A DNA stretch of 46,168 bases from a virus: the IMG/VR virus record IMGVR_UViG_3300030380_004708, positions 1 to 46,168 of that record. One strand, written 5' to 3'. Under the pieces are notes generated by a model. The model was not told the origin of the DNA. It saw nothing but the letters and a program-made list of their open reading frames with translations, and made no database searches. The position numbers were made by a program, and so were the translations under genes. Shown piece by piece: positions 1 to 30,268 of this stretch (position 1 is its first letter; each line of letters begins with the position of its first letter).

Positions 1-1581
1 CTTGGCGTGGCTTTATCCGGACTAGATTTTCTAGGCGCTGCTGGCGCACCAGCGAAAGCTGTTGTCAAAAAAGGCATTTCATCTCTTAATGATGATGCCA
101 TCGACACTTCTTATCGCATATCACATCAACCAAGCGGCAGAACCGATGATGCTATACAGCTTGACGATCTTACAAAAGACATTTCTGGTAATGAAGGAGG
201 ATACCCAGATGATTTTTACGGGCCTAAGGGACAACAGCTCTATGCTCCAGGCAAGATGTTTGCCGACGACGAATACGGAATTGCAAATACTCAAAGTTAT
301 GAAAAAATTTTAGAATCAAAAAACAAACCCAATAAAGAAATAACAATCTATAGAGCAGTGCCTGCAGGAGTTAAAAAAATTAATGAAGGAGACTTTGTAA
401 CTCTTAGTCCAAAATACGCAGAATTACATGCGACTAGTGGTTATGGACAACGCGGAGATGAGGCTGGCAAAGTTATATCAAAAAAAGTTAAAGTACAAGA
501 CATAATTTGGGATGGTAACGATGTAAATGAGTTTGGTTATTTTCCAAAAATAGCAAAAAAAGTGGAAAAACCTAAGAAAGTAAAAAAACTTAAACCTAAA
601 GAAACAGAACAGTTATTTTCAGGCATTGAAAGCACAAAAAGAGAATCCTTAGATGCTCCTTACAAAAATCCCATAGTCGATCTTGTTAATGAAAGACCGG
701 AGCTGACACAACTATCTAAATCCGCTCTTGACCCTAACGAGGATGGTGTGGTAAGTCTATTTAGAGTCTACAACCTCAAGGAAGGGCAAGAGCTGTTACC
801 AGAAAAAGGCATAGCATCATTGTCAACAGATGTTGCACCTGCTTTAGAGATAGGACAAAAGATGGAATTTATAAGAGGCGGTGGCTTTAACCCAATGTCA
901 CTCGGGCGAGAGACTCCTGAATTTACTATAGAAAGACCAGCAAAACTTATAAGGTATGAAGTTCCAATAGAAAGAGTGAAGGCACACGTTCCATCGTTAT
1001 TGGATCAAGTGCCAGCACGCGCCGCCAATGCTGAAAAAAATTCTAAGTTTATGTCTGCAAGCAGCGAAAAAGAAGTTTTAGCAGATCTTAGCGGCATACA
1101 ACCTGCGGAAATATTTGATGTTCCATTCAGAGCTGGCGCAAGATATTTTGAAGGCAGCGTCCCTGCGTATAGACCAAGTCCTTATGACATTGAAAAAGGC
1201 GCAGATCCAACAAGGGTTCTGAACTATGGTTTGTTTAGACTTTTTGAAGAGGGCAGAACGCCCAAAGGCTTGATGCGCGATATTATGAAAAGTGGTAGTC
1301 CTAAATTTAGGAGAGAGCCTAAATCCGCTTACATGTCGTATAAAAACTATTTAGCTAAAGTAGCGGCTGATGAGGCAAACCCGTCACGCAGACCCGCCTC
1401 TTTTTCAGGAGATCAGAAAACTTACGCAGAACTCAACCCAGGCGTCTCTCCATATCAAATGTATGGTCCTGAAGAATTTCCCATGCCAATAGCATCAAGA
1501 CCAAGAGCTAAACAAGATTATCAAGATTTACTAGACGCTTTTGAAAAATATAAAAAAATAAAAGGTATCGGCTCGTTGTAA
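1..1581 (+). CDS. Virion-associated protein with two ADP-ribosyltransferase-like segments (5'-truncated)
   Basis: The reading frame is open to the first base of the window, so the N-terminus is missing; the GTG at 7 is probably not the true start. Residues below count from it. Residues 30-180 look like an ADP-ribosyltransferase fold: 'TIYRAVP' (Arg 116), 'VTLSP' near 132, and 'NEFGYFP' (Glu 175). A second, weaker copy at 250-372 has 'LFRVYN' (Arg 253), 'SLSTD' near 271 (STS-like), and 'SEKEVL' near 353 (E-x-E-like). A Lys-rich linker (185-200) joins them. The start 'GLDFLGAAGAP..KKGISSL' resembles a hydrophobic module in the gene at 5358-6695. The length and N-terminus suggest a virion or ejected protein that modifies a host target. 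The fold call rests on motifs only, and the enzymatic role is inference. Confidence 0.55.
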   Translation, partial: LGVALSGLDFLGAAGAPAKAVVKKGISSLNDDAIDTSYRISHQPSGRTDDAIQLDDLTKDISGNEGGYPDDFYGPKGQQLYAPGKMFADDEYGIANTQSYEKILESKNKPNKEITIYRAVPAGVKKINEGDFVTLSPKYAELHATSGYGQRGDEAGKVISKKVKVQDIIWDGNDVNEFGYFPKIAKKVEKPKKVKKLKPKETEQLFSGIESTKRESLDAPYKNPIVDLVNERPELTQLSKSALDPNEDGVVSLFRVYNLKEGQELLPEKGIASLSTDVAPALEIGQKMEFIRGGGFNPMSLGRETPEFTIERPAKLIRYEVPIERVKAHVPSLLDQVPARAANAEKNSKFMSASSEKEVLADLSGIQPAEIFDVPFRAGARYFEGSVPAYRPSPYDIEKGADPTRVLNYGLFRLFEEGRTPKGLMRDIMKSGSPKFRREPKSAYMSYKNYLAKVAADEANPSRRPASFSGDQKTYAELNPGVSPYQMYGPEEFPMPIASRPRAKQDYQDLLDAFEKYKKIKGIGSL

Positions 1582-4236: not shown

Positions 4237-4496
4237 ACGTCAAAGAAGATACTATGAAAAATCTTGTTTTTATTGTAAAAGAGTGGGCCAAGTCATCAGA
4301 CTTAAAACAAATTGCAGAGTCTTATGACTGCGCAAAACACGATGAGGAAATGAAACAGATATTAGATGACGGTGGCACTTGTTGGGGTATTGACCACAGT
4401 CTTGGCCTTGGCGCTACTGACTGGCTGTTTGAAACTAGAAACATTTTAAGAATGATTAAACGTGGCGAGATTAAGCTTGAGGAGAAGGCAGTATGA
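4233..4496 (+). CDS. Conserved hypothetical protein
   Basis: An 87-residue protein, mostly helical, with 'DDGGTCWGIDHSLGLGATDW' in the middle and a charged C-terminus. GGAGG lies just before the ATG and the gene overlaps both neighbours by 4 nt (ATGA type). It precedes the recombinase, so an accessory role for that enzyme is conceivable, but nothing in the sequence shows it. Confidence 0.7.
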   Translation: MNVKEDTMKNLVFIVKEWAKSSDLKQIAESYDCAKHDEEMKQILDDGGTCWGIDHSLGLGATDWLFETRNILRMIKRGEIKLEEKAV

Positions 4497-5323
4497 TTGA
4501 ACCAAGAAAACAAGTAAACCATATCTACGGCTATATCAGAGTATCGTCTGAGCAACAGGTCAAAGACGGCTCTTCACTCGAAGAACAAAAGAGATCGATT
4601 GAGGAGTTTGTCGCTAACAAATACGGCGGTAGGAAAGTTGATAAGTTCTTTACCGACGCTGGCATTAGTGGCATGAAGCCTTTGTTAGAGCGACCAGGCT
4701 CTAGGGAGCTGACCGACGTGATGGACGCCAACGATGTGATAGTAGCAACTAAGCTCGACCGTATTGCCAGATCACCCCTTGAGATGATTAACATGGTACC
4801 CGATCTGGAGGAGACTGGTATTACGTTGTATTTCTGCGACATGTTTGGTGATGTGCCTATGGTATTACCGAAAGCAAAAGAAAAAACGGGATTGGCAGCA
4901 AAAATGGATTTAACCAGAATGGCTAACAATCAATTGGTTACCATGCTTGCTTGGTTTGCGGCCATGGAGAGAGAAATGATTATGTCTCGACTTAACGGCG
5001 GCAAACTCGTCTATGCGGAAAGAGGCTACTCCATTGGCGGTAAAACTCCGTTTGGTTATCGCAAAGAATACGATGGATCTGGTAGCAGACGCAGAACCAA
5101 GCTAGTGCCTATACCCGAGGAGCAAAAAGTTTTAAAGCATATTTATGCACTTAGAGCCAAAGGCTTAGGTGCAAGAAAAATAGCTAAACAGATCCAAAGT
5201 TCACATCCCGGCTATGAGGATTTTCCGTATCACAAGGTCCACAGAATCCTAAAACGCAAGTTCCAAGGCTTGCTTGACATGGAAGATCAAAAATATGACA
5301 TTGGTTACGGAGAGGTTAGCTAA
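4493..5323 (+). CDS. Serine recombinase (resolvase/invertase family)
   Basis: A 276-residue enzyme with the N-terminal resolvase catalytic domain: 'YGYIRVSSEQQ' (nucleophile Ser 18), 'SLEEQKRSIEEF', 'VDKFFTDAGISG' and 'VIVATKLDRIARS' (active-site Arg residues). The long helix 'TMLAWFAAMEREMIMSRLNGG' follows, then the recombinase segment 'GKTPFGYRK' and a short DNA-binding end. It is far shorter than large serine integrases (about 450-600 residues) but longer than Tn3-type resolvases (about 185). It could resolve multimers, invert DNA or integrate. No pair of inverted recombination sites is obvious nearby. Confidence 0.9.
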   Translation: MIEPRKQVNHIYGYIRVSSEQQVKDGSSLEEQKRSIEEFVANKYGGRKVDKFFTDAGISGMKPLLERPGSRELTDVMDANDVIVATKLDRIARSPLEMINMVPDLEETGITLYFCDMFGDVPMVLPKAKEKTGLAAKMDLTRMANNQLVTMLAWFAAMEREMIMSRLNGGKLVYAERGYSIGGKTPFGYRKEYDGSGSRRRTKLVPIPEEQKVLKHIYALRAKGLGARKIAKQIQSSHPGYEDFPYHKVHRILKRKFQGLLDMEDQKYDIGYGEVS

Positions 5324-5357
5324 TAGAAAAAGTTAGCGTTTCAGTTATAATCATGGA

Positions 5358-6695
5358 ATGTATCAAAATATTGACATATTCCAACAAGGTGGAGCAGCTG
5401 ACAAAGATCTTTTAGATCGAGTGGTTGAAGGCTACGAAGAGAATGTGCCAATACCAGCGCAGATATTAGCCGGTTTTACACCGCCTGGCATGGCAGCAGA
5501 CTTAGTCGCTGGCGGTAAATATGGCCGCGATGCAATCGAAGAGTTTAGAGAGGGCAATATCAAACCTGGCCTAATGTATGCGGGTATCGCCGGACTCTCA
5601 ACCCTTGGTGCGCTACCGCTGATTGGCGATTTATTTAGACCAGGTAAACAAGCGCTTAAAAGCGGTATTGCTAGCTTACCAACCACCAAAGCAGATGTTA
5701 TGAAACATCAAGAGGATCTATACTCTGGTAATACGATACGCGATGCTAATAAAATGTTTGATCGAGCTGTGCGTAGTGCACCTGAGTTTAATCAGAGCAT
5801 AGATGAATTAGCAGCGAGCTTAAATCTATCAACTAGCTTGCCTGGTAAAACACTTAAGTTTGACAGCTATGGAGTGCCTGTTGGCAAGATAAAACAAGTG
5901 CCTAGAGCAATCGAAAAATCTGTCGACAAGTATGAAGGCGATGTAACAAAGCTAACCGATCCCATAAGAACAAGAGTTTTAGTCTCAACACCAGCAGAGG
6001 AAGAGGCTTTGGTTAGACTTGTCAAAGAAAATTTTGAAACTTTTGATAAAGGCAGATTAGTAAAACCCGAAGGTTTTGTAGATCGTAAGCTACTAATTAA
6101 ATTTACCAACTCTAAAGGCGAGCCAATTGTCGGTGAAATATCTGCGATTACTGAACCTATGTGGCGTGCGTCTGACGCTAATCATAAGGCTTTTGAGGAG
6201 TTTAGATCTTTATTTCCCAAAGGCATGCCAACTGATGCAGCAGAGCGTCAAGCAATAAATGCTGATATTTTAAGAAAAGGAAAGGATCTTGAAAAACAAA
6301 TGAGTGCTACATTTGACGTTGCTAAAAAACAAATTGATCCTAGTTTTTATAAACAAGACGTGAAAAAGTTTGCTATGGGTGGCTATGTCTCAGCTGGTAG
6401 TTCGGGCAAATCTTTACCGATTACGCCAAACTTGTCAGCAAACGCAGACTTAGACATTTTTTCACCGTCAATTAAAAAGTCGGCTACTTGGCTGGGCATA
6501 GCTAGTGTCCAGTCAGACTTACCGGGCGCTATGAAATATCCTTCATATCCCAAGCCAACAGGATCGACAACCGCAGGACCGTCCTCCCATGTAAAAAATA
6601 AAGTTTCTTTTGCCATCACCCCTAGTTTACACAAATTTACAAAAATCTACAACCCAAATCAAATTAATATTTTTGATAAAAACGATGACCGATAA
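5358..6695 (+). CDS. Putative virion/ejected protein with RelA/SpoT-like domain
   Basis: A 445-residue protein. Residues 30-110 form a Gly/Ala/Leu-rich hydrophobic module similar to the start of the truncated gene at 1-1581. Residues 165-290 resemble the RelA/SpoT nucleotidyltransferase-like fold: 'AIEKSVDKY', 'LTDPIRTRVLVSTPAEEEAL', 'GFVDRKLLIKF', 'GEISAITEPMWRA' and 'NHKAFEEFR', in the family order (K..S..K / D-x-IRxRV / D-K / EI..T..M / H..YE..R). The C-terminus carries 'KKFAMGGYVSAG', a motif repeated in other proteins here. It could make an alarmone-like nucleotide or modify nucleotides/RNA after ejection. The domain is a motif-level call and the activity is unproven. No clear ribosome-binding site is seen. 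Confidence 0.55.
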   Translation: MYQNIDIFQQGGAADKDLLDRVVEGYEENVPIPAQILAGFTPPGMAADLVAGGKYGRDAIEEFREGNIKPGLMYAGIAGLSTLGALPLIGDLFRPGKQALKSGIASLPTTKADVMKHQEDLYSGNTIRDANKMFDRAVRSAPEFNQSIDELAASLNLSTSLPGKTLKFDSYGVPVGKIKQVPRAIEKSVDKYEGDVTKLTDPIRTRVLVSTPAEEEALVRLVKENFETFDKGRLVKPEGFVDRKLLIKFTNSKGEPIVGEISAITEPMWRASDANHKAFEEFRSLFPKGMPTDAAERQAINADILRKGKDLEKQMSATFDVAKKQIDPSFYKQDVKKFAMGGYVSAGSSGKSLPITPNLSANADLDIFSPSIKKSATWLGIASVQSDLPGAMKYPSYPKPTGSTTAGPSSHVKNKVSFAITPSLHKFTKIYNPNQINIFDKNDDR

Positions 6696-6825
6696 AGAAA
6701 AAATTATTAGCGCCATAGCTACTATTGACTCCATGCTTACACTTGATTTTATGACAGATCCGGTGCGCGCAGATCTTAATAATATTAAGACCTTGTTAGT
6801 TGCAGTAAGAGATAACTTAAGCTAA
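6685..6825 (+). CDS. Small helical protein, unknown
   Basis: A 46-residue helical protein, 'MTDKEKIISAIATIDSM..'. I chose the ATG at 6685, which overlaps the end of the upstream gene by 11 nt; a longer in-frame version from 6610 would lie deep inside that gene. The last base of its stop is also the first base of the next gene's ATG. The function is unknown; the coupling suggests a small partner of the tail adhesin that follows. Confidence 0.6.
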   Translation: MTDKEKIISAIATIDSMLTLDFMTDPVRADLNNIKTLLVAVRDNLS

Positions 6826-7676
6826 TGGCCAACATTAACGGCTGGGGTAGAGGATCCTGGGGAGAAGGTGCGTGGGGAAGCGCCCTACCAGTAAACTTAT
6901 CCACTGTAGGCGCCATAACTTCTGCGGTTGGCTCAGTCAGCGTAGTCGCCAAAGCTAACGTCACTCCGGCAAGTCAATCAATTACAGCATCGACAGGATC
7001 ACCGTCCGTTATTGCTGCAGCCATCGTGCAAGTTAGTGGCACAGCCGCAACCACCAGTTTAGGAGCTCCAAGTGTTACCGCAGCAGCCGATGTTTCGGTT
7101 ACTGGTGTTGCAGCCACAGGAAGCACTGGCGCAATAACCGTAACCGGGAAAGCCAACATCATACCAACAGGTCAAGCTGCCACCAGTGCTGTAGGATCTA
7201 TAGCACCGACAGCAGATGCAAATACAACTGTGTCAACGGTTGGTGTAATTACCGCAAGTTCAGGATCTGTAACTACCAATGCTGCGGCCAATGTAACACC
7301 AGACTCGCAAGTTGCTACATCGCAACTAGGCACACCGACTATCAACGTTGGCATAACCTTAGAGCTTACAGGGCAAGCATCTAACAGTGGCGTTGGTGCA
7401 ATTAGTCCAACGGCAGCAGCTGATGTTAATATCGCAGGTGTTGATATAACAACTAATCCTGGATTTATTTTAGTATATGGAGAGATAGACACTGACCAAA
7501 ATGCAAGCTTTGCAGAAATCTCTACCACGCAAACTGCAAGCTATAGTGAGATTAGCACATCGCAAACACCTAGCTATAGCGAAGTTTCGACCTCACAAAC
7601 TGCTAGCTACTCAGAGGTTGCGACAACGCAATCTGCCAATTATACTAATATAAAAGCAGGTAGGGACGCGGCATAA
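6825..7676 (+). CDS. Repeat-rich tail fibre/adhesin-like protein
   Basis: A 283-residue protein that opens with 'NGWGRGSWGEGAWGSALPV', then about ten repeats of 15-25 residues rich in Ala, Thr, Val and Gly ('VTGVAATGSTGAITVTGKAN'). It ends with a ladder of 11-residue units of the type 'QTASYSEISTS'. Such beta-rich repeats are typical of phage tail appendages. The Trp-Gly segment recurs in the stabilisation-type protein at 34718-36613. It lies directly before the tail fibre gene, so it probably sits on the same appendage. Confidence 0.7.
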   Translation: MANINGWGRGSWGEGAWGSALPVNLSTVGAITSAVGSVSVVAKANVTPASQSITASTGSPSVIAAAIVQVSGTAATTSLGAPSVTAAADVSVTGVAATGSTGAITVTGKANIIPTGQAATSAVGSIAPTADANTTVSTVGVITASSGSVTTNAAANVTPDSQVATSQLGTPTINVGITLELTGQASNSGVGAISPTAAADVNIAGVDITTNPGFILVYGEIDTDQNASFAEISTTQTASYSEISTSQTPSYSEVSTSQTASYSEVATTQSANYTNIKAGRDAA

Positions 7677-7694
7677 ATATGAGAAGAGTTTAAT

Positions 7695-10600
7695 ATGGCT
7701 GAATATACAAACGATTTAAGATTAAAAGAAATTGGTACTGGTGAATCCTCTGGTACCTGGGGTACAGAAACTAACACTAATTTAGAGCTGATTGCTGAGG
7801 CTTTTAGTTTTGGTACAGAGGCGATAACAACTAACGCAGATACCCACACTACTACTATTGCAGACGGTTCTACTGATCCGGGAAGATCTATTTATTTAAA
7901 ATATACAGGTACCCTTGATTCAGCTTGTACCATAACAATAGGGCCAAATACCGTATCTAAACTTTGGTTTATTGAAAACGGTACATCAGGATCACAAAAT
8001 ATTATTATCTCACAAGGATCTGGCGCTAATGTCACGATACCAGCAGGTCATGTTAAAGCCGTATATTCAGACGGAGCTGGCTCTGGCGCTGCTATGGTAG
8101 ATGCCTTTACCAACCTAAATCTTGGCGGTACTACCACAGTTGATGATCTTACAATTACGGACGACCTTACAGTAACAGATGATCTAATTGTAAATGGCGA
8201 TATTGACCTTGAAGGCAATATGGATATAAACGGTTCACTCGAAACAGATGCTTTGTCGTTAAATGGCACTACTGTTTCATCAACCGCAGCTGAACTTAAT
8301 TTACTTGATGGCTCTAGTGCTAATACTGTTGTTAACAGCAAAGCCGTCATTTATGGATCTAGCGGAGAGTTAGCAGGAACTTTATCAACAGCAGCACAAA
8401 CAAATATTACAAGTCTTGGCACACTAACAACACTTACAGTAGATGATATAACAATTAATGGTTCTACTATTTCTGATGCTGGTAATTTAACACTAGATGT
8501 TGGTGGAGATATTATTCTCGATGCAGGTGGTGATGATATTACATTTAAGAGTGGTGGCACAGAGTTCGGTGGCATATTTAAAAATAATAATGATATGTTT
8601 ATCAATTCAGCTATTTCAGATGGTGATATTAAATTTAGAGGTAATGATGGTGGTTCTTTTATTATCCCACTTACCCTTGATATGTCTAATGCAGGTAGAG
8701 CAACCTTCAATGAAAATGTTATTGTTGGTGGTAATTTAGAAGTTAGTGGTGCAGATGTAACCATTACCTCAAATATAATTCATGCAGGAGATACAAATAC
8801 ATTTTTTGGATTTAATGATGCAGATACATTTAGGATTACAACAGGTGGCTCTGAGGCATTTAGAGTGGATTCATCTCAACAAGTTGGTATTGGAACTACA
8901 AGTCCTTCAGAAAAATTACATATAAGCGGTACTTCAGCTTCAGGAGACGTTTCAGCAAGAATAGTAAATACAGACACTTCAAGTGCAACATCTTATGCTG
9001 GCATAAGTTTAGTTGGTGGTAATAATGAAGCAAGTATACGTAGTGTGCATGGTTCATCTGGATTAGGTGCTTTATCATTTTTTAATGAAGGTGCTGAAAG
9101 AATGATTATTTCAAATACAGGAAATCTTGGTATAGGAACTTCAAGTCCGGGACAAAAGCTAGATGTTGCAGGAAATATAACAGCAGACGCTTTTATTGGT
9201 AGGTCTAATATTTCAGTACCTACAGGTGATGCATCAATTTTTAGGGTAGCAGATAATACTTTAGCATTGGCGACAGCTTCTACAGAAAGAATGCGTATTG
9301 ATAGTTCTGGAAACGTTGGTATAGGAACTACAACAATTAGACAAAGATTACATCAACACGTCTCAGATTCAGGTGCAAACTTTCATGCTTTTACAAACTC
9401 AACAACAGGAACAGGAGCAACAGATGGCTTAGTGGTTGGTATTGATGCAAATGAAGATGGTTTAATTTGGAATCATGAAAATGAAAACATGCTTTTTGCA
9501 ACTAATAATACAGAAAGAATGCGTATAGATTCTTCAGGAAATTTATTAGTTGGTACTACGACATCTGAAGGAACAGTAACAATTGAAGGCGATGCAAGTG
9601 CAAGTCAATTTACTGCATTAGCAGTAAAACAAGATTCAAGTGGGCATGACCAAACTTCTAGTATGACTTGTGATATAGACTTTTATCTTTGGGACAACAA
9701 TACAAGGATTTCTACCCCACAAGCAAGAATTGGTATAACCGGTGATAGCACAGCAGACCAAAATAATGAAGCTGGTGGTCAATTATGTTTTTATACAAAT
9801 ATAGCTAACAATTCTTCTCCAAGCTTAACAGAAAGGATGCGTATTGATTCTTCAGGAAACGTTGGTATAGGAACTGCAAGTCCACAAAATATACTGCATA
9901 CAGATAGTGCAAGTACAGGAGAAGTTGTTGGTTTAGCTTTATCAAATTCAAAAATTTTAGTTGCAAATACTGATAGTGGATTTGGTTCAAATGGTTATAT
10001 GGCTTTTCATACCAGAGGTAGTGATTCAGTAGCAGAAAGAATGCGTATTGATTCTTCAGGAAACGTTGGTATAGGAACTGCAAGTCCTGCTACAGATTTA
10101 CACATTGCGTCAGCTACTCCAACGCTTACTTTCACAGATACAGATAATAACTATGATGCAACAATAGCAGGTCTTAGTGGAAGTTTAGTTTTAAAAGCTG
10201 ATGCTAATGATGAGTTTGGTACAGAAAGTATACAATTTCATACAGGAGGCAGTCAAAGAGCACAGTTTGATTCTTCAGGTGGTTTATTGATTGGAACTAC
10301 TACACGAATAAGTGATACTAATAATGGTGGAGCAAGTTTTACTCCTGTTTCTTCAGGAAGACAAAGATTAGAATTAGGTCATACATCATCAAGTACATTA
10401 GCTGTAGCACAATTTTTTGGTAATTCAAGTGAAACTGCTGCTGGTAATATAGCTTGTTCTGGTGGTGCATGTGATTTTAATACATCTTCTGATGCTAGAA
10501 GAAAAAATGTTTTAGGAGAAGCAAAAGGTTTAGAGGTAATTAACAAACTTAATCCTGTACATTTTGAATGGAAAGAATCTAAAGAAAAACAAGATGGTTT

Positions 10601-10772
10601 AATAGCTCAAGAAGTTGAACCTGTAGTATCAAATGCTGTAAGCATTAGTGATGATGGTTACTATGTAATGGATTATAGTAAGTTGGTAACACCACTTATT
10701 AAAGCTGTACAAGAGCAACAAGAACAAATAGAATCACTAAGAAGTGAAATTGCAATTTTAAAAGGAGAATAA
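7695..10772 (+). CDS. Tail fibre with C-terminal S74 intramolecular chaperone
   Basis: A 1025-residue protein. The N-terminus 'NDLRLKEIGTGESSGTWG' is a common virion-binding start of marine phage fibres. The middle carries beta-helical repeats, at least seven of the type 'ERMRIDSSGNVGIGT'. The last 95 residues form the peptidase S74/intramolecular chaperone domain: 'SSDARRKN' (Ser 931 or 932 with Lys 937, the cleavage dyad), 'NPVHFEWK', 'GLIAQEVEPV', 'YSKLVTPLIKAVQE' and a coiled-coil end. The chaperone trimerises the fibre and then cuts itself off. This is likely the host receptor-binding protein. Confidence 0.9.
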   Translation: MAEYTNDLRLKEIGTGESSGTWGTETNTNLELIAEAFSFGTEAITTNADTHTTTIADGSTDPGRSIYLKYTGTLDSACTITIGPNTVSKLWFIENGTSGSQNIIISQGSGANVTIPAGHVKAVYSDGAGSGAAMVDAFTNLNLGGTTTVDDLTITDDLTVTDDLIVNGDIDLEGNMDINGSLETDALSLNGTTVSSTAAELNLLDGSSANTVVNSKAVIYGSSGELAGTLSTAAQTNITSLGTLTTLTVDDITINGSTISDAGNLTLDVGGDIILDAGGDDITFKSGGTEFGGIFKNNNDMFINSAISDGDIKFRGNDGGSFIIPLTLDMSNAGRATFNENVIVGGNLEVSGADVTITSNIIHAGDTNTFFGFNDADTFRITTGGSEAFRVDSSQQVGIGTTSPSEKLHISGTSASGDVSARIVNTDTSSATSYAGISLVGGNNEASIRSVHGSSGLGALSFFNEGAERMIISNTGNLGIGTSSPGQKLDVAGNITADAFIGRSNISVPTGDASIFRVADNTLALATASTERMRIDSSGNVGIGTTTIRQRLHQHVSDSGANFHAFTNSTTGTGATDGLVVGIDANEDGLIWNHENENMLFATNNTERMRIDSSGNLLVGTTTSEGTVTIEGDASASQFTALAVKQDSSGHDQTSSMTCDIDFYLWDNNTRISTPQARIGITGDSTADQNNEAGGQLCFYTNIANNSSPSLTERMRIDSSGNVGIGTASPQNILHTDSASTGEVVGLALSNSKILVANTDSGFGSNGYMAFHTRGSDSVAERMRIDSSGNVGIGTASPATDLHIASATPTLTFTDTDNNYDATIAGLSGSLVLKADANDEFGTESIQFHTGGSQRAQFDSSGGLLIGTTTRISDTNNGGASFTPVSSGRQRLELGHTSSSTLAVAQFFGNSSETAAGNIACSGGACDFNTSSDARRKNVLGEAKGLEVINKLNPVHFEWKESKEKQDGLIAQEVEPVVSNAVSISDDGYYVMDYSKLVTPLIKAVQEQQEQIESLRSEIAILKGE
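9829..10087 (+). repeat. 55 bp direct repeat inside tail fibre gene
   Basis: The 55 bp at 9829-9883 and at 10033-10087 differ at one base (G/A at the eighth position) and are 204 bp (68 codons) apart. They encode 'ERMRIDSSGNVGIGTAS'. More diverged copies lie near 9287 and 9510. Recombination between them would add or delete an in-frame fibre segment. Confidence 0.85.
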
Positions 10773-11905: not shown

Positions 11906-12256
11906 ATGGACTCAGTTGTACAGCTGATAAATGAAGTAGGTTTCCCTATAGCCGCGGCCATTGGTCTTGGTCTTTTTATTTGGAAACTTATCAATAAAAT
12001 TATTGACGGCATGGAAACCAAAGTAGATGTCTTGGATGAAAAAGTATCAGCACAAATATCAGAGATAGAACAAAGATTAGGCCAAAAGCTTGATTCTCAG
12101 CACGGTATCTTGGTTGCACTTATCGACAGAGTTAGATCCGTAGACAATGAGATCATTAGACAAGACACTTTACTAAAGACTATACTTGGAGTACCCCAGC
12201 TTATGCACACAGATAGGCTGGCAAAAGCAGATAGAGATGACCAAAGAAAAGATTAA
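11906..12256 (+). CDS. Membrane-anchored coiled-coil protein, holin-like
   Basis: A 116-residue protein with one membrane helix at residues 11-30 ('VGFPIAAAIGLGLFIWKLI') followed by a long amphipathic coiled coil ('VDVLDEKVSAQISEIEQRL'). This matches small lysis-region proteins in marine phages that are often labelled holin. The next gene, csgF, starts 20 nt before it ends, which ties the curli-type block to the lysis operon. Confidence 0.6.
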   Translation: MDSVVQLINEVGFPIAAAIGLGLFIWKLINKIIDGMETKVDVLDEKVSAQISEIEQRLGQKLDSQHGILVALIDRVRSVDNEIIRQDTLLKTILGVPQLMHTDRLAKADRDDQRKD

Positions 12257-12731
12257 GCTACCACTACATTACAAAATAATTATTATTTGGGCGTCGGTTT
12301 TGTTTATAGGTATTTTAGCTACAAATGTAAAAGCAGACGAAATTAAATTTAATTTTAAATCACCATCTTTCAGTGGTATTGGCACCTCAGCACATTATCT
12401 TACGATTGAGCAACAAGAATTTTCACGGAAAGAACAACTTAAAGCTGACCTCAAGGCCTTGGAAGAACAAAGAAAGAGAGATGAGGAAAACTCAGTGATT
12501 TCTAGATTCACCAAAAACCTTGAATCACGCATCTTTGCACAAATCAGCAGACAGATCGTAGAGCAGTTATTTGGTGAAAATCCAGAGACGACAGGATCTT
12601 TTACTTTATTTGATAACATAATCAGTTGGTCCAGCGACGGGACTTACATAACCCTAACTATTTTTAACACTTTAGATGGCACGACTACTGAAATTATTGT
12701 ACCAATCGGCGACTTTGGTTTTGGTAATTAG
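12237..12731 (+). CDS. csgF: CsgF-like curli assembly factor
   Basis: A 164-residue protein with a Sec signal peptide (hydrophobic 12-29, cut near 'VKA/DE', residue 33). The mature start 'EIKFNFKSPSFSG' matches the CsgF plug peptide that inserts into the CsgG pore (E. coli 'MTFQFRNPNFGG'). Residues 86-155 ('ISRFTKNLESRIFAQI', 'NTLDGTTTEIIVP') match the CsgF body, where E. coli has 'DRKTGQTSTIQV'. An extra charged helix at 62-86 has no E. coli equivalent. The ATG at 12237 puts the signal peptide at the N-terminus and overlaps the holin-like gene by 20 nt. In curli systems CsgF sits at the cell surface on CsgG and helps nucleate the fibre. Confidence 0.9.
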   Translation: MTKEKIKLPLHYKIIIIWASVLFIGILATNVKADEIKFNFKSPSFSGIGTSAHYLTIEQQEFSRKEQLKADLKALEEQRKRDEENSVISRFTKNLESRIFAQISRQIVEQLFGENPETTGSFTLFDNIISWSSDGTYITLTIFNTLDGTTTEIIVPIGDFGFGN

Positions 12732-13521
12732 TTGCACTTCGCACGCTAAATTAATATCACCATGTCTCACTAACCCTGAAGGGGATTACAAAGATCTTGT
12801 CTCAATCGTTGGTAAAGCTCAATGTTTTTCCAAAGATGCTTTTATTAATCTACCGATAACGGAAGAAATACTTAATATTCCTAAACCTAAAGATCAACCC
12901 ATAGTTGCTGTTTATAAGTTTGGCGATTTTACTGGACAAAGAAAATCAGTAGATGGTTATGCAAATTTCAGCACAGCCATGACGCAAGCACCTGAGACTT
13001 ATCTAATAAGAGCTTTAAAACAATCTGGTTTCTTTCGTGTGGTAGAACGCGTAAATATAGATCACATCACTCGTGAGCGCCAAATAATTAGATCTACCCG
13101 TGAGAAGTTTGAGGATGCAACAGAACAACTACCGTTACTCTTTGCCGGTCTTATTATTGAAGGTGGTATTGTAGATTACAACACAAATCTACGCACAGGA
13201 GGCGCGGGTGCCAGAACGCTCGGGATCGGCAGATCTAAGCAATACCGGGAGGATACTGTTTTGGTTTCAATCAGAGTTGTCTCCGTTAGCACTGGCGAGA
13301 TCTTATTAGAAAACTTAACGACCAGAACTATTTTATCAGTTGGTATTTCAAGCGATGTATTTAGGTTTACTAATAACTCTACTGAGTTAATAGAGTTTGA
13401 AACGGGAAATGCCATGAATGAAAGTAAGTCTATCGCTTTGCAATCAGCTATAGAAATTGGTATCGTAGATATTGTAAAACAAGGGCGCGAACGAAATTTT
13501 TGGGAATATTATGATGAATAA
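12676..13521 (+). CDS. csgG: CsgG-like outer-membrane curli secretion pore
   Basis: A 281-residue lipoprotein with lipobox 'LVISC' (Cys 20). It matches E. coli CsgG along its length: 'VYKFGDFTGQ' (E. coli 'VYNIQDETGQ'), 'NFSTAM' (Asn 97/Phe 98, the pore constriction pair), 'LIRALKQSGFFRVVER', 'RERQIIR', and the transmembrane hairpin region 'GGAGARTLGIGRSKQYREDT' plus 'RVVSVSTGEIL' and 'VFRF'. CsgG forms a nonameric beta-barrel that exports unfolded fibre subunits across the outer membrane. It overlaps csgF by 56 nt, so the two are tightly coupled. All key parts are present, so a working pore is likely. Confidence 0.95.
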   Translation: MARLLKLLYQSATLVLVISCTSHAKLISPCLTNPEGDYKDLVSIVGKAQCFSKDAFINLPITEEILNIPKPKDQPIVAVYKFGDFTGQRKSVDGYANFSTAMTQAPETYLIRALKQSGFFRVVERVNIDHITRERQIIRSTREKFEDATEQLPLLFAGLIIEGGIVDYNTNLRTGGAGARTLGIGRSKQYREDTVLVSIRVVSVSTGEILLENLTTRTILSVGISSDVFRFTNNSTELIEFETGNAMNESKSIALQSAIEIGIVDIVKQGRERNFWEYYDE

Positions 13522-14236
13522 ACTCTTGTTTTTTTTATTGTTTAGCACAACTGTTTTTGCAGACAACGAAATCTTTGTAGATCAAACTGGGAACTCAGCT
13601 ACTATAGATTTAGAACAGCTTGGCTCTTCAAACCTTATCGGCGGGACTAGCGCCACTACAACCTCGATGACCGCACTTGACCTGGATGGAGTGTCAATGA
13701 CGCTTGACATCAATCAAATAGGATCCTCAAACGTCTTTAGATCTGACGGTATTGACGGCGATAATTTTACTGGTTTTTTTGAGTTTGATGGCGATAGCAA
13801 TGTTTGGGACTTGTTAATGAACTCTACAGGCTTGATTACAGCTGATTATGTTGACCTAAATATTGATGTTACAGGATCTAGTAATGAGGCAGATATTAAA
13901 ATAGCAGAAAACGCTGACTCCTCTTACCTCAATCTAGATTGGATTATTACTGGTGACTCTAACGTGTTTGACTTTGATATAGATTATGAAAACGCAGTCA
14001 ACTATATGGATATAAATGGCAGTACTAACACAATAAATTTTACAGCTAGCGGATACTCTGGTACTACAGCATCTGATTCTGGTTATTTCAATTTAGATCT
14101 TGATGGCAGCAATAATACGCTAGACATCACACAATCTTCAACTTTAGCTCGTGATTGGTTATCCATCTCAACTAATTCTTCTAATAGCAATATCTGCGTC
14201 GTTCAAAATGATGGTGGCACCACCACTTCATGCTGA
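13511..14236 (+). CDS. Curlin-like repeat protein (putative amyloid fibre subunit)
   Basis: A 241-residue exported protein with a clean signal peptide (residues 1-18, 'TVFA/DNE'). The mature part has about eight units built on G-x-x-N or G-x-S-N turns: 'QTGNSATIDLEQLGSSN', 'INQIGSSNVF', 'FDGDSNVWDL', 'VTGSSNEADIKI', 'ITGDSNVFDF', 'INGSTNTINF' and 'LDGSNNTLDITQ'. Curlin repeats have the form S-x5-Q-x-G-x2-N-x-A-x3-Q; here the G-x2-N core is kept but the flanking Gln/Ser are eroded and Asp is enriched. Two Cys lie in the last 12 residues. It overlaps csgG by 11 nt. It is the expected cargo of the CsgG pore. No separate csgA/csgB pair is seen. Confidence 0.8.
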   Translation: MMNKLLFFLLFSTTVFADNEIFVDQTGNSATIDLEQLGSSNLIGGTSATTTSMTALDLDGVSMTLDINQIGSSNVFRSDGIDGDNFTGFFEFDGDSNVWDLLMNSTGLITADYVDLNIDVTGSSNEADIKIAENADSSYLNLDWIITGDSNVFDFDIDYENAVNYMDINGSTNTINFTASGYSGTTASDSGYFNLDLDGSNNTLDITQSSTLARDWLSISTNSSNSNICVVQNDGGTTTSC

Positions 14237-15272
14237 TGCGATAGGAGATATTACTGAATTAAAAGGATACGGCAGAGTTGTAAGAGACGAGACTTTTGCT
14301 GCTGAGTTAGATTTTGACATTAACTCGTTAGATAATGTCGAAACTTCTGCTGGCCGCATAGCCATTACATTCCTTGATGAATCTACTGTAAAACTTACAG
14401 AGCATAGCAATCTTCTTATAGACGAATATGTTTTTAATAGTAACCCCGATAAATCTAAAATGGCTTTACAGTTTGCTAGTGGCACAATACGGTTTATCAG
14501 TGGTAACGCAAATAAACTAAATAAGAAAAACATCACCTTATCTACACCAACTTCACAAATTTTTGTGCAAGGCACAGATTTTGTGTGTTCCGTTGATCTT
14601 TTGGGCAAGGCACTTATAATTTTATTGCCTGATGAATTTGGCAACGCTAGTGGTGAAATCCTAGTACAAACCGCAGCTGGGCAAACTTTACTGAATCAGC
14701 CTTATCAGGCAACTACTACTTCGATGTACGAGAAAGCACCAACCAAACCAATAACTTTAGACATAGATCTTAATTTTATTGACAACATGCTTATTGTCTC
14801 GCCACCTAAAGAAGAAGTGATTAATGAGGAACAACAACAAAATGAACAATCTGATTACTTAGATTTCTATGATTTAGAAATAGATGCTTTAGCAGAGGAC
14901 TTTTTGGAAGAGGAGGAGGATATGTCTTTTTCGGAGCTCGATATAGATTATTTAGCAACTGATTTCTTTGAAAACCTATTAGATGTATTAGACGGTCTTG
15001 GTATTGAAGAGGAAGAAGATCAACTAACAAACTTTTCCAACGGCGTTCAGTTAGTAGGCACGAAGTTCGGACAAGATTTAGAAACGCAGATTACGACTAT
15101 TATTCAAGGCAATCAAGTAAAGCTGATGCGTATGGTCAATCAGAACGCGCAAGTTTTAGTCAACGGCGACGATTCCTACACGGTTATCTTTATACAAGAT
15201 GGCGTAACAAAAACAGTGCAAATTAATGGTGCATCTTCATCAGTTATAACCATTAAACAAAGTTCTGGATGA
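14151..15272 (+). CDS. Exported FecR-domain protein with acidic C-terminal region
   Basis: A 373-residue protein. An N-terminal hydrophobic stretch (7-28) ends 'LHADA', a possible signal peptide; this needs the start at 14151, which overlaps the fibre gene by 86 nt. Residues 31-118 follow the FecR domain: 'GDITELKGYGRVVRD', 'VETSAGRIAITFLDESTVKL', 'NLLIDEYVF' and 'LQFASGTIRFISG'. Residues 222-293 are very acidic with 'EEEE' runs and two 'D-x-L-x2-DF' units. FecR domains act in the periplasm as sensors or scaffolds and often sit next to CHASE2 cyclases in bacteria. Here the next gene is such a cyclase, so the pair probably signals together. It is unrelated to iron-citrate uptake as far as I can see. 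Confidence 0.8.
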   Translation: MIGYPSQLILLIAISASFKMMVAPPLHADAIGDITELKGYGRVVRDETFAAELDFDINSLDNVETSAGRIAITFLDESTVKLTEHSNLLIDEYVFNSNPDKSKMALQFASGTIRFISGNANKLNKKNITLSTPTSQIFVQGTDFVCSVDLLGKALIILLPDEFGNASGEILVQTAAGQTLLNQPYQATTTSMYEKAPTKPITLDIDLNFIDNMLIVSPPKEEVINEEQQQNEQSDYLDFYDLEIDALAEDFLEEEEDMSFSELDIDYLATDFFENLLDVLDGLGIEEEEDQLTNFSNGVQLVGTKFGQDLETQITTIIQGNQVKLMRMVNQNAQVLVNGDDSYTVIFIQDGVTKTVQINGASSSVITIKQSSG

Positions 15273-17020
15273 AGAAGACAATATTCACAGTATTTATAAT
15301 ACTATTGTTGCCGTTACTGTTTCAGTCTTATCCTTTACAAATTTTAAAACTACAAACCTTTGATACGTTTGTTAAAGAATATGAGCCTAGTGGCAACTTT
15401 GCTATTCTCAATATTACACAAGAAGATATTTTTAAATCTGGTGGTTGGCCTTTTCCAAGACAGGAGCTTGCTCAAATACATGTAGACTTGCTGAATGCAG
15501 GTGCTATGGGAGTTGGTTGGGTAATCTCATTCCCACAGTCTGATCGTTTTGGTGGTGATGCTGTATTTTTAGAGGCATTAAATTATAGTCCTAGTGTCTT
15601 AGCTATGTTTGAATATGATAATGGTTTTTATCCAAAAACTAGCGGTACTGTTTTACTTGGTGAAAATATAAGTGGTATTATGGCAAAGGGAGTTGTCTCG
15701 AACAGCCACGATTACCTCCAAATCCCCCAAGGTCTGTCATCAGCTCCCACTGAAGTTGATAATCTTGTAAGACGGTTACCATTGTTAATGCAAACACCAG
15801 ACGGTTTTGTTTCTTCTTATGGTACAGAGGTTTTAAAAGTTTTGGCAGGTGCTAATACCTACATAATTAAAGGCGATGAAAATGGCATGCAACAAATAAC
15901 TGTGCAAGGATTACCGCCAGTTGATGTTGATCGCTTAGGCAGAAAATGGATTAGTTGGGTAAAAACTCCAGAAACCACACTAGACGAAATGAATGTCGAT
16001 GGTAAATTTGTTTTTGTTTCTGTGGATGCTCCAGGTGTTATGCCGCAAGTTGCAACTCCTGTCGGTCTGCTTGGCCCACACAAAGTTCAAGCAGCTTTAG
16101 CTGAGTCAATTTTGATCCAAGATTCTCCAAAAATACCAGATTGGGCATTAGCAGCCGAAATTTTAATTTTTGCAATTTTTGTGCTCACAGTTTCCCTTGT
16201 ATGCGCATATCTTAGTATGACCAAGGCGTTAGCCTTCGGCGTCATTTTCATGGCGTTGACAGGCTTCTTAGGCGTTTTAAGCATCAAAAACGGCATTTTA
16301 TTAGATTTTTCGTGGACTTTAGTGTCAGAATTTGTTGTTGGCAGCGTTATTTTCTATTTACGCTTTAGAAAAGAGTATTTATTACGCCAACAGATCAAAA
16401 AACAATTTGAACACTATTTAGATCCGCGACAAGTTAAACAACTTCAAGAGAATCCAGATTTGTTAAAACTTGGTGGCGAGAAAAAATATTGCAGTTATCT
16501 TTTCACCGATTTGCGAGGCTTTACTTCGTTAAGCGAAAAGTTACCGCCAGAAGAAGTTACAAATATTATGAACAAAACTTTGACTGTCCAGGTAAACGCA
16601 GTGCAAAAATTAGGTGGTATGACAGACAAATTCATCGGCGACGCCGGCATGTTTATATTTGGAGCGCCCTTAGATTGTGAAGATCACGAAACCAAAGTGG
16701 TACAAGCTGCAATAGATATACAAAAAGGCATAACTGAACTGAACAAAACACTTTCTACTCCGGTTGCAGTAGGGGTAGGCTGTCAGTCTGGATATGCAGT
16801 TATAGGAAATATGGGATCAGATACTCGGTTTGATTATTCTGCTATTGGAGATCCTGTAAACACAGCGGCAAGGTTAGAGTCAGCAACTAAAGAGATTGGT
16901 GTAGATATATTAATTGGCGATCAAACTGCAAAAAATTGTAAAATTGTATTAAAATTACTAAAACCTATAAACGTTAAAGGTAAAAAAGATAAATTAACAA
17001 TATGGACAGTCGATGAGTAA
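15269..17020 (+). CDS. CHASE2-domain class III adenylate cyclase, membrane-bound
   Basis: A 583-residue protein with a membrane helix at 5-20, a periplasmic CHASE2 sensor domain at about 25-285 ('FAILNITQEDI', 'GWPFPRQELAQIH', 'VDGKFVFVSVDAPG'), a cluster of membrane helices at 291-363 and a cytoplasmic class III cyclase domain at about 405-583. Catalytic residues are present: metal Asp 414 ('FTDLRGFTS') and Asp 458 with Lys 454 ('DKFIGDAG'), and Asn 531/Arg 535 ('PVNTAARLES'). Ser 524 occupies the base-selecting position, as in IIIb-type enzymes, so it likely makes cAMP from ATP. It overlaps the FecR gene by 4 nt and the spanin by 8 nt. An active cyclase on a phage is unusual. Confidence 0.93.
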   Translation: MKKTIFTVFIILLLPLLFQSYPLQILKLQTFDTFVKEYEPSGNFAILNITQEDIFKSGGWPFPRQELAQIHVDLLNAGAMGVGWVISFPQSDRFGGDAVFLEALNYSPSVLAMFEYDNGFYPKTSGTVLLGENISGIMAKGVVSNSHDYLQIPQGLSSAPTEVDNLVRRLPLLMQTPDGFVSSYGTEVLKVLAGANTYIIKGDENGMQQITVQGLPPVDVDRLGRKWISWVKTPETTLDEMNVDGKFVFVSVDAPGVMPQVATPVGLLGPHKVQAALAESILIQDSPKIPDWALAAEILIFAIFVLTVSLVCAYLSMTKALAFGVIFMALTGFLGVLSIKNGILLDFSWTLVSEFVVGSVIFYLRFRKEYLLRQQIKKQFEHYLDPRQVKQLQENPDLLKLGGEKKYCSYLFTDLRGFTSLSEKLPPEEVTNIMNKTLTVQVNAVQKLGGMTDKFIGDAGMFIFGAPLDCEDHETKVVQAAIDIQKGITELNKTLSTPVAVGVGCQSGYAVIGNMGSDTRFDYSAIGDPVNTAARLESATKEIGVDILIGDQTAKNCKIVLKLLKPINVKGKKDKLTIWTVDE

Positions 17021-18584: not shown

Positions 18585-18629
18585 GAGCTGAGTTGCAAAA
18601 AATATCGTCGCTACCTTGTTTCTCAGCTC
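18585..18629. repeat. Inverted repeat before the terminase gene
   Basis: Perfect 8 bp arms GAGCTGAG (18585-18592) and CTCAGCTC (18622-18629) are separated by 29 nt and end 4 nt before the terminase ATG. There is no T-run, so it is not a standard terminator. It could be an RNA structure that limits terminase translation, or a packaging-related site. Confidence 0.4.
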
Positions 18630-18633
18630 GATT

Positions 18634-20118
18634 ATGAGCGACGTTTCTTTCAAAGACTTTGATATTTTATCTGAACAAGATAAAGCTGAGGCTGTAGCCT
18701 TATTACAAAGGTATGACCAATTAGAGAAGCAAGATGGCTGTCAAAGCGATTTTATTAGTTTTATTAAGCACATGTGGCCAGAGTTTATTGAAGGCAGACA
18801 CCACAAAATAATAGCTGATAAATTCAACAAGATTGCCGACGGTAAACTGAAAAGATTAATTGTTTGTTTGCCACCTCGACACTCTAAGTCAGAGTTTGCA
18901 TCAACCTTTTTTCCTGCTTGGATGATGGGTAGAAGAGGTAATTTAAAAATAATACAAACCACTCACACGGCTGAACTTGCAGTTAGGTTTGGTAGAAAGG
19001 TAAGAAATATCATTGATAGCACTGAATATCAACACATTTTTCCTGAGCTTAAATTACAGGCAGATAACAAATCAGCTGGGCGTTGGACAAGTAACCAAGA
19101 GGGTGAGTTCTTTGCTGCTGGTGTTGGTGGTGCTATTACAGGTCGTGGTGCAGACTTGCTTATAATAGATGATCCTCATTCTGAACAGGACGCGCTTTCA
19201 CCCAAAGCTCTAGAATCAGCTTACGAATGGTACACATCTGGACCACGACAGCGTTTACAGCCAGGCGGGATTATAGTGATAGTAATGACTAGATGGAGCA
19301 CTAAAGATTTGGTTGGTAAGGTGCTAAATAAACAAGGCGACGAAAACGCCGATCAATGGGAAGTAGTTGAGTTTCCAGCAATCATGCCAGATTCAGAAAA
19401 ACCATTATGGCCAGAGTTTTGGAAAAAAGAGGAATTATTAGGAGTGAAAGCATCACTGCCTATATCAAAATGGAATAGTCAATGGATGCAAAACCCCACA
19501 GCTGAAGAAGGGTCTATTGTTAAAAGAGAGTGGTGGAATCGCTGGGAGGATGATGATGTGCCACCTTACAGCTACGTCATACAGAGCTATGATACTGCGT
19601 TCTCAAAAAAAGAAACGGCTGACTACTCAGCTATAACGACATGGGCGATCTTTAATCGTGGCGATGAAAATAATGATGAAATCATATTACTGGATGCAAA
19701 AAGAGTGAGATGTGACTTTCCAGAATTAAAAAAACTAGCTTTGGAGGAGTATAGATATTGGGAACCGGATTGTGTACTCATTGAAGCCAAAGCTTCTGGT
19801 ACTCCGCTAACACATGAATTAAGACGCATGGGCATACCTGTAACTTCCTATACACCAAGCAGAGGACAAGATAAGGTAGCACGAATGAACAGTGTTGCAC
19901 CTATATTTGAGTCAGGCATGGTGTGGGCACCAGAGGATGATTTTGCTGAGGAAGTCATTGAAGAAATGGCATCCTTTCCCTTTGGTGATTATGATGACTA
20001 TTGCGATAGTGCTACAATGGCTTTGATGAGATTTAGGCAAGGTGGTTTTATATCTTTATATGAAGATTACCAGGATGAGGTGAAATTATTAAGGAAGAAC
20101 AGGACAGTATATTATTAA
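18634..20118 (+). CDS. terL: Terminase large subunit (DNA packaging ATPase/nuclease)
   Basis: A 494-residue protein from the ATG at 18634; an upstream in-frame TTG at 18616 adds six residues. ATPase part: atypical Walker A 'LPPRHSKSE' near residue 80 and Walker B 'LLIIDDPHSE' near 176, with the motor motif 'IIVIVMTRWS'. Nuclease part: 'SYDTAFSKKETADYSA', 'VLIEAKASGTPL' and 'DYCDSATMALMRF', supplying the acidic metal ligands of the RNase H-like fold. It pumps DNA into the prohead and cuts it. No small subunit is recognised next to it. Confidence 0.95.
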   Translation: MSDVSFKDFDILSEQDKAEAVALLQRYDQLEKQDGCQSDFISFIKHMWPEFIEGRHHKIIADKFNKIADGKLKRLIVCLPPRHSKSEFASTFFPAWMMGRRGNLKIIQTTHTAELAVRFGRKVRNIIDSTEYQHIFPELKLQADNKSAGRWTSNQEGEFFAAGVGGAITGRGADLLIIDDPHSEQDALSPKALESAYEWYTSGPRQRLQPGGIIVIVMTRWSTKDLVGKVLNKQGDENADQWEVVEFPAIMPDSEKPLWPEFWKKEELLGVKASLPISKWNSQWMQNPTAEEGSIVKREWWNRWEDDDVPPYSYVIQSYDTAFSKKETADYSAITTWAIFNRGDENNDEIILLDAKRVRCDFPELKKLALEEYRYWEPDCVLIEAKASGTPLTHELRRMGIPVTSYTPSRGQDKVARMNSVAPIFESGMVWAPEDDFAEEVIEEMASFPFGDYDDYCDSATMALMRFRQGGFISLYEDYQDEVKLLRKNRTVYY

Positions 20119-29776: not shown

Positions 29777-30268
29777 ATGATTAAAAAAAGAAATCAAAAA
29801 AAGAAAGTAAACAAAGTTATTAAAGGCTTAAAAAAGGCAAGCGCCTTACATGCTAAACAAGCTAAAACATTAGGATCTTTAAAATTTAAGAAAGGTGGCG
29901 GTGCCAAGAAAAAATCAGGAGCACCTAGCAATGTTAGCAATCCTAGCCTATACGCAAGAGTAAAAGCTGAAGCTAAACGAAAGTTTGATGTGTACCCCTC
30001 TGCATACGCAAATGCTTGGTTAGTGAGAACTTACAAAAAACGTGGCGGTAAATATAAGGGAGCTAAGAAAGCTGTTGGCGGTGAGGTAAATAACAAAAAC
30101 CTAAAACCAATACCAGCTCAAAACAAAGGGCTACCTAAACTTCCAAGAAAAGTTAGAAATAAAATGGGCTATATGCGTAACGGCGGAGCTGTTGCTATGG
30201 TTCAGGGCAGAGGCTGTGGTGCTATGATGGATTCAAAACGCAAAAAAACTCGCGTTCCTAGAGGCTAG
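29777..30268 (+). CDS. Very basic small phage protein 2
   Basis: A 163-residue protein with the conserved block 'NPSLYARVKAEAKRKFDVYP' and 'NAWLVRTYKKRGGKY', found in phage and giant-virus proteins of unknown function. The rest is Lys/Gly-rich ('KKGGGAKKKSGAPS'). It contains the short motif 'GGEV' and 'NGGAVAMV', like other proteins here. It starts directly after the previous stop. Confidence 0.75.
   Translation: MIKKRNQKKKVNKVIKGLKKASALHAKQAKTLGSLKFKKGGGAKKKSGAPSNVSNPSLYARVKAEAKRKFDVYPSAYANAWLVRTYKKRGGKYKGAKKAVGGEVNNKNLKPIPAQNKGLPKLPRKVRNKMGYMRNGGAVAMVQGRGCGAMMDSKRKKTRVPRG

What the first reader, a model, noticed from the sequence alone, without database searches (positions are those of the whole stretch)
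5358..6695. RelA/SpoT-like nucleotidyltransferase domain in a phage structural-type protein
Seen: residues 165-290 show the order K..S..K, 'D-x-IRTRVLV', 'VDRK', 'EISAITEPM', 'HKAFEEFR', as in RelA/SpoT and toxic small alarmone synthetase-type domains. Inference: an effector that makes (p)ppGpp-like nucleotides or modifies tRNA/nucleotides, possibly delivered with the DNA. Together with the ART-like protein it suggests a set of ejected effectors.
Basis: partly seen in the sequence, partly recalled or inferred. Interest (0 to 1): 0.6.

Follow-up and report, generated by a model that had tools for sequence, protein, structure and literature searches.

The report
Swappable phage alarmone-synthetase-like effector
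A marine (probably SAR11-infecting) virus carries a gene for an enzyme related to bacterial starvation-alarm (RelA/SpoT) synthetases; it sits in a slot where related viruses carry a different toxin instead, and a conserved small gene on the opposite strand, overlapping its tail end, always travels with it and may be its neutraliser.

Summary
ORF 5358-6695 contains a RelA/SpoT-type (RSH) synthetase domain (residues ~176-292). The window protein alone scores in no family. However, 8 of 12 homologues hit Pfam RelA_SpoT, a distant one at E=6e-6, and AlphaFold2 (22 sequences, pLDDT 90.5) matches Tas1, an exported alarmone synthetase, RelQ, RelP and Rel as its top PDB folds. Lys, Asp, Glu and His positions of the synthetase signature are invariant across the family; the guanine-recognition motif is not canonical, so the product is unknown.

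The protein is modular. A 107-residue hydrophobic leader is shared, at 95% DNA identity, with phages whose same slot encodes a zeta-toxin kinase; homology stops exactly at codon 107 and resumes at the next gene's ATG. A second slot (ORF 7-1581) alternates between an ART-like domain and a PBECR5 nuclease. This is a compact, divergent member of the known polyvalent/polymorphic phage effectors.

Unexpected: a conserved 77-aa acidic protein is encoded on the minus strand (6383-6616), inside the effector's 3' end. Codon-constraint tests show the minus frame is the coding one there. It accompanied RSH effectors in 10/10 newly found loci and zeta effectors in 0/11, so it is an immunity/antitoxin candidate (untested). 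Delivery in the virion and enzyme activity are inferred, not shown.

The parts
5358..6695 (+). Effector ORF, 445 aa: leader + RSH-like synthetase + tail
   Evidence: full-length relatives 84-97%, distant ones 37-73% over the core
5358..5678 (+). Leader module (residues 1-107), with hydrophobic/amphipathic stretches, ending in the junction motif K-x-GIxSL; shared with zeta-toxin effectors in other phages
5679..6684 (.). Swapped cassette: no homology to zeta-bearing L007 here, 94-95% identity on both sides; it holds the RSH domain and the minus-strand small gene
   Evidence: blastn
5883..6233 (+). RSH-like synthetase core (residues 176-292)
5892..6206 (+). Invariant catalytic-signature positions: K179, K187 (donor binding), D201 (metal), R204, D230, G239, R243, E260 (catalytic Glu), H276, R283
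   Evidence: 8-sequence alignment reaching L077, L078, L082, L083; the role assignments follow known RSH synthetases (own knowledge)
6363..6389 (+). KKFAMGGYV tail: native C-terminal motif of the family (L078 ends EKFAEGGIATLQFGDYR); similar FAxGG motifs occur in late/virion ORFs of the window
6383..6616 (-). Minus-strand small gene, 77 aa, pI 4.2 (MAKETLFFTWEDGPAVV...LPELPAET), nested in the effector ORF; candidate immunity/antitoxin protein
4493..5323 (+). Serine recombinase (Resolvase PF00239, E=2.1e-26) immediately upstream; conserved beside the slot whether it holds RSH or zeta
6685..6825 (+). 46-aa ORF (MTDKEKIIS...); its ATG is the right-hand border of the cassette
6825..7676 (+). Conserved downstream gene (WGxG-rich, unknown function), in turn followed by the tail fibre (7695-10772)
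7..1581 (+). Slot-1 effector, 5' end cut by the window edge: ART-like protein; the same leader precedes a PBECR5 nuclease in L006 and the RSH domain in L030/L148

Best explanation
It is a compact polyvalent/polymorphic phage effector. The leader is the shared carrier and the C-terminal RSH domain the swappable warhead. In the host cytoplasm the RSH domain probably transfers pyrophosphate from ATP to a nucleotide or to tRNA, braking host nucleotide supply or translation, while the cognate small acidic protein encoded on the opposite strand of the cassette keeps it inactive in the producing cell. Shown here: the fold, retention of the catalytic signature, purifying selection, cassette exchange with a zeta toxin, and linkage of the minus-strand gene to RSH cassettes. 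Inferred: catalysis, acceptor, delivery with the DNA, and the immunity role. Confidence (0.62) is for 'RSH-type enzymatic effector in a swappable cassette'; for the immunity role alone about 0.4.
For: AF2 pLDDT 90.5 with Tas1 (E=2.8e-6), exported SAS 8vx3 (4.1e-6), RelQ, RelP and Rel as top PDB folds. The viral structure library returns DdrB-like, ART-PolyVal-like and RelA/SpoT-named phage proteins among its first hits. Pfam RelA_SpoT hits in homologues. K179, K187, D201, R204, E260, H276 invariant. Clean swap with a Zeta_toxin (PF06414, E=7.7e-16) effector at the same locus. Insertion of ART domains into the same protein: L012 versus L013 are 96-99% identical apart from a ~520-bp insert; PF18760 hits. 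Minus-strand gene constrained and present in 10/10 RSH versus 0/11 zeta loci.
Against: The window sequence itself hits no family model, and TM-scores to RSH structures are modest (query-normalised 0.34-0.55 among the top hits). The syn3 motif is DxK (neither SxH of (p)ppGpp nor GxN of (p)ppApp synthetases) and syn4 lacks Q/R, so activity could be altered or lost. No virion proteomics. The cultured relatives HTVC023P and HTVC027P gave no tblastn hit to the protein. A homologue of the small gene also sits opposite an ART-type effector without RSH (L079-L081), so it is not strictly RSH-specific.
Confidence: 0.62

Rival explanations
1. The gene pair works as a resident toxin-antitoxin or superinfection-exclusion module made in the infected cell, like toxSAS/CapRel systems, and is not packaged or injected.
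For: The RSH domain plus a tightly linked small acidic gene is the usual toxin-neutraliser layout; RSH toxins in TA modules and phage defence are established (PMC11559606, PMC9712102 abstracts).
Against: The hydrophobic leader shared with zeta effectors, association with ART, ParB-like-looking and PBECR5 polyvalent-type domains and the tail-fibre neighbourhood fit a delivered protein better. The small gene is on the opposite strand, not in an operon with the toxin.
Confidence: 0.2
2. The RSH fold is retained but catalytically dead or repurposed (a nucleotide-binding or structural module of an ejection protein).
For: Altered syn2/syn3/syn4 motifs (RTR, DxK, no QxR) in the window clade; weak Pfam scores.
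Against: K179, K187, D201, E260 and H276 are invariant down to about 30% identity. Distant members keep near-canonical motifs (L082 VKSRKSI, EIQIKT; L078 EIQIST). The core is under strong purifying selection.
Confidence: 0.13
3. The minus-strand ORF is a regulator or an unrelated phage gene (or the sense read-through is the functional part), not an immunity protein.
For: A homologue lies opposite an ART effector near a portal gene (L079-L081). No family or structure match. The sense frame stays open over it in all nested loci, with per-locus chance as low as 0.03.
Against: It lies inside the swapped segment, is present with RSH and absent with zeta in the same slot, and is acidic (pI about 4.2) opposite a basic RSH domain (8.3), though the L077 copy has pI 8.
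Confidence: 0.35
4. The RSH resemblance is a coincidence of short motifs in an unrelated structural protein.
For: No profile hit for the window sequence alone.
Against: Independent fold match with 33 consecutive RSH hits and RelA_SpoT Pfam hits spread over the homologues.
Confidence: 0.03

Closest known systems
Polyvalent proteins of phages and conjugative elements (Iyer et al. 2017, PMC5512222), which include RelA/SpoT domains
   Same: Multidomain phage proteins combining ART, PBECR, zeta and RelA/SpoT domains; BFVD matches are DdrB-like/ART-PolyVal proteins with an RSH-like region; relatives L082, L013 and L041 carry ART + RSH
   Different: The window version is compact (one enzymatic domain) and occupies a defined swap slot next to a serine recombinase; its sequence is too divergent for the family models; the linked minus-strand gene is not described in the parts of that paper read here
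MuF polymorphic toxins / Apk2 (p)ppApp synthetases (PMC5576092, PMC12226406)
   Same: Phage-encoded constant N-terminal carrier plus variable C-terminal toxin, including RelA-like and ART domains; small linked immunity proteins
   Different: No MuF domain; different leader; the candidate immunity gene is on the opposite strand, nested or convergent instead of following downstream; syn3 DxK instead of GxN; MuF toxins are tied to temperate phages, whereas this is an HTVC023P-like marine podovirus lineage whose lifestyle was not established
Tas1/Apk1 and exported alarmone synthetases such as SaEAS (8vx3; PMC12691689)
   Same: Best structural matches
   Different: 12-18% identity; bacterial secretion substrates, not phage cassettes
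toxSAS/CapRel toxin-antitoxin RSH enzymes
   Same: RSH fold with a linked neutraliser candidate
   Different: No phage-style leader; weaker fold matches (FaRel E=2.8e-3; CapRel 4.3e-4)

Membership tests
RelA/SpoT (RSH) synthetase domain | RSH nucleotidyltransferase fold | tested here: met
   AF2 pLDDT 90.5; top 33 PDB matches are all RSH enzymes
RelA/SpoT (RSH) synthetase domain | Profile similarity to PF04607 above the curated cut-off | tested here: inconclusive
   Window: none; homologues 15-27 bits, best 26.9 against 27
RelA/SpoT (RSH) synthetase domain | Catalytic Asp (syn2) and Glu (syn4) plus donor-binding Lys | tested here: met
   D201, E260, K179, K187 invariant
(p)ppGpp synthetase | Guanosine-recognition motif Y-x-S-x-H (syn3) | tested here: not met
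   G-F-V-D-R-K; motif definition from PMC12226406
Apk-type (p)ppApp synthetase | syn3 GxN, syn2 RYT, syn4 YH | tested here: not met
   DxK, RTR, AI/II in the window clade
Polyvalent/polymorphic phage effector | Constant carrier region with exchangeable effector domains | tested here: met
   RSH versus zeta in slot 2; ART versus PBECR5 in slot 1; ART insertions
Polyvalent/polymorphic phage effector | Packaged in the virion and injected | not testable with these tools
   Needs virion proteomics
MuF polymorphic toxin | N-terminal MuF domain | tested here: not met
   No MuF Pfam hit in the window protein, L011, L013, L005 or L078
Polymorphic toxin-immunity pair | Linked cognate neutralising protein | tested here: inconclusive
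   Linkage and co-exchange shown; neutralisation untested

The most novel reading that the evidence does not exclude
A phage alarmone-synthetase-type effector whose immunity/antitoxin protein is encoded on the opposite DNA strand, nested inside the effector gene's own 3' end, so that toxin and neutraliser move together as one antiparallel cassette that is exchanged wholesale for a zeta-toxin cassette beside a serine recombinase.
Probability: 0.35. Interest if true: 0.82.

Novelty: new variant of a known kind. Interest (0 to 1): 0.62.

Why it matters
It extends polymorphic RSH effectors to a marine phage lineage related to pelagiphages (nearest isolates HTVC023P/HTVC027P), where alarmone-type effectors are not named in the HTVC023P-type genome paper searched here (no match for 'ppGpp', and none of the passages shown for 'rela' concerned RelA). 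It shows a clean natural exchange between two mechanistically different toxins at one locus. If the minus-strand gene is the immunity protein, it is an unusual genetic layout in which effector and neutraliser share the same DNA on opposite strands, and it gives a ready-made toxin-neutraliser pair to test.

Tried and rejected
Single-sequence searches of the window protein against Pfam, PHROGs, NCBIfam and the phage collection gave nothing of use. First fold job with 5 near-identical sequences was useless (pLDDT 39). PDB profile hits to OGT TPR repeats and to ArsA rejected: repetitive or short-motif matches away from the RSH core pattern. PADLOC hits (Cas1, JetA, ZorA) scattered and unconvincing. 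I first read residues 336-445 as a conserved C-terminal 'trailer' module; rejected because the conservation is explained by the minus-strand gene. The codon-position test could not tell the strands apart there (both third positions coincide); the transversion test could. The genome-contig scan with the RSH core found no cellular relative. The sigma-70/terminator scan near the cassette was at chance level, so no promoter for the small gene is claimed.

Full report
Observation. The ORF at 5358-6695 (+) is 445 codons and has the quoted motifs. Alone it matches no Pfam or PHROG family, nothing convincing in NCBIfam, and no record of the phage collection. Scans of IMG/VR gave full-length relatives at 84-97% and then more distant ones. 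Codon-position statistics show a translated, selected frame.

Fold and family. Of 12 homologous cores, 8 match PF04607 RelA_SpoT (best E=2.2e-4). Relatives reach 18.3 bits (L013), 21.6 (L077) and 26.9 (L078, cut-off 27). AlphaFold2 on a 22-sequence alignment of window residues 97-334 gave pLDDT 90.5, pTM 0.83. The PDB fold search ranks Tas1, exported SAS 8vx3, RelQ/SAS1, RelP/SAS2, Rel and CapRel first; all of the top 33 are RSH enzymes. The viral library ranks DdrB-like and ART-PolyVal-like phage proteins and RelA/SpoT-named phage proteins among its first hits.

Active site. Across window, L040, L042, L048, L077, L078, L082 and L083 the invariant residues are K179, K187, T200, D201, R204, D230, G232, G239, R243, G254, V258, E260, M268, A271, H276, R283 and P291 (plus A137, F144). 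These fall where RSH synthetases have the donor-binding lysines, metal Asp, aromatic syn3 segment and catalytic Glu (own knowledge of RSH enzymes). The syn3 triplet that reads SxH in (p)ppGpp synthetases and GxN in (p)ppApp synthetases (PMC12226406) is DxK here, and syn4 lacks the canonical Q/R in the window clade but keeps EIQI-type sequence in L078 and L082. A pyrophosphokinase with an unassigned acceptor is the fair reading.

Modularity. L005-L007 share only residues 1-107 plus synteny and then carry a zeta toxin (PF06414, E=7.7e-16). By blastn the window and L007 are 95.3% identical over 4486-5678, unrelated over 5679-6684, and 94.5% identical over 6685-7699: a clean cassette exchange ending at codon 107 (after ...KSGIASL) and at the ATG of the next gene. 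A leader scan found only RSH or zeta domains behind this leader. L012 and L013 are 96-99% identical but L013 has a ~520-bp ART insertion between the RSH domain and the tail (PF18760 E=0.009; 6.6e-6 in L082). The serine recombinase 4493-5323, the 6825-7676 gene and the tail fibre are conserved around slot 2 whichever effector it holds.

The minus-strand gene. Opposite the 3' end of the RSH gene lies a 77-codon ORF (ATG at 6616, stop at 6383-6385) whose translation is conserved in the RSH loci that reach it (46-100% identity at that stage) and absent from zeta loci. In the overlap both third codon positions coincide, so I compared transversions at sites that are fourfold degenerate in one frame only. 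Pairwise rates: both fourfold 0.447, sense-only 0.119, minus-only 0.295, neither 0.059; in the RSH core, as a control, the sense class dominates (0.377/0.311 versus 0.136/0.103). Counted by parsimony on a tree: minus-frame effect p=0.004 at sense-fourfold sites and 0.09 at the others; sense-frame effect not significant (0.18, 0.25); in the control the sense effect is p=3e-8 and 0.001 and the minus effect absent (0.20, 0.71). The minus frame is therefore the constrained coding frame over effector residues ~344-420; the sense frame remains open, with only weak evidence of selection for that. In L077, L078 and L082 the small gene is a separate convergent gene overlapping the RSH gene by 8-70 nt, and RSH genes L078 and L082 end shortly after an EKFxxGG motif, which suggests that nesting arose by extension of the sense ORF. 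In loci found through the leader, so not ascertained on the small gene, 10 of 10 RSH loci have it and 0 of 11 zeta loci do; these loci are not phylogenetically independent. It is acidic (pI 4.2) against a basic RSH domain (8.3). It has no convincing family, PHROG, PDB or phage-record match. A homologue lies opposite an ART-type effector next to a portal gene (L079-L081), so it may be a broader partner family.

Source. The record is a 46-kb IMG/VR virus contig. Its portal is 46-47% identical to Pelagibacter phages HTVC023P and HTVC027P, and its CsgF-CsgG-curlin-FecR-CHASE2/adenylate cyclase block matches the curli module reported for HTVC023P-type pelagiphages (PMC9599517). A SAR11 host is likely but inferred.

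Known kinds. RelA/SpoT, ART, PBECR and zeta domains in polyvalent and MuF-fused phage proteins are described (PMC5512222; PMC5576092; PMC12226406). The effector is thus a divergent, compact variant of a known kind. The antiparallel nested partner and its exchange together with the effector domain are the new elements; a literature search for such an arrangement returned no paper, which is weak evidence because it required all five terms.

Limits. No enzymatic, toxicity, binding or proteomic evidence exists. Delivery in the virion is inferred from the leader, the polyvalent architecture, the tail-gene neighbourhood and FAxGG motifs shared with late ORFs.

Noticed in passing
window 11906-17020: CsgF (PF10614), CsgG (PF03783), curlin repeat, FecR and CHASE2-adenylate/guanylate cyclase block; matches the curli (T8SS) module known from HTVC023P-type pelagiphages.
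   Followed up: partly
window 7-1581; L006 507-2267; L149: Second effector slot: ART-like in the window and L149, PBECR5 nuclease in most others, same leader; proteins in the window and L006 end in KGxGSL, resembling the leader-effector junction motif KxGIxSL.
   Followed up: partly
window 5652-5678 (residues 99-107 of ORF 5358-6695); L040, L045 (SKKGIANL), L013 (SKGITGL): A [KR]xGIx[SN]L motif recurs at module junctions before each effector domain and at C-termini (also GGLGSLA at the end of ORF 42897-45737); possible processing or recombination site.
   Followed up: no
window 18616-20118, 29777-30268, 36921-38465, 42897-45737: [FM][AR]xGG motifs in several late/virion-type ORFs resemble the effector's C-terminal FAMGGYV; possible packaging signal.
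   Followed up: partly
window 4493-5323: Serine recombinase of the resolvase/invertase type adjacent to the swapped cassette in RSH and zeta loci alike (70-100% identity); could mediate cassette exchange.
   Followed up: partly
L104, L110, L125, L129: Longer RSH effectors (574-637 aa) carry a ParB-like-looking segment (KRQPIEVL...GGxxxxxAL...IPV) between leader and RSH domain; judged by eye only.
   Followed up: no
L079-L081: Homologue of the minus-strand small gene convergent with an ART-like effector gene, directly beside the portal gene, without an RSH domain.
   Followed up: partly
L088 21952-26083 (HTVC027P gp41-gp42): Cultured pelagiphage HTVC027P has two large unnamed proteins between terminase and portal; gp42 has an HNH-like segment and GG motifs, possibly another effector slot.
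   Followed up: no
window 6617-6695: Sequence upstream of the small gene's ATG (sense SLxKFTKNYNPNxxNIF) is conserved even in distant L104; it could hold the minus-strand promoter or a real sense C-terminus.
   Followed up: no
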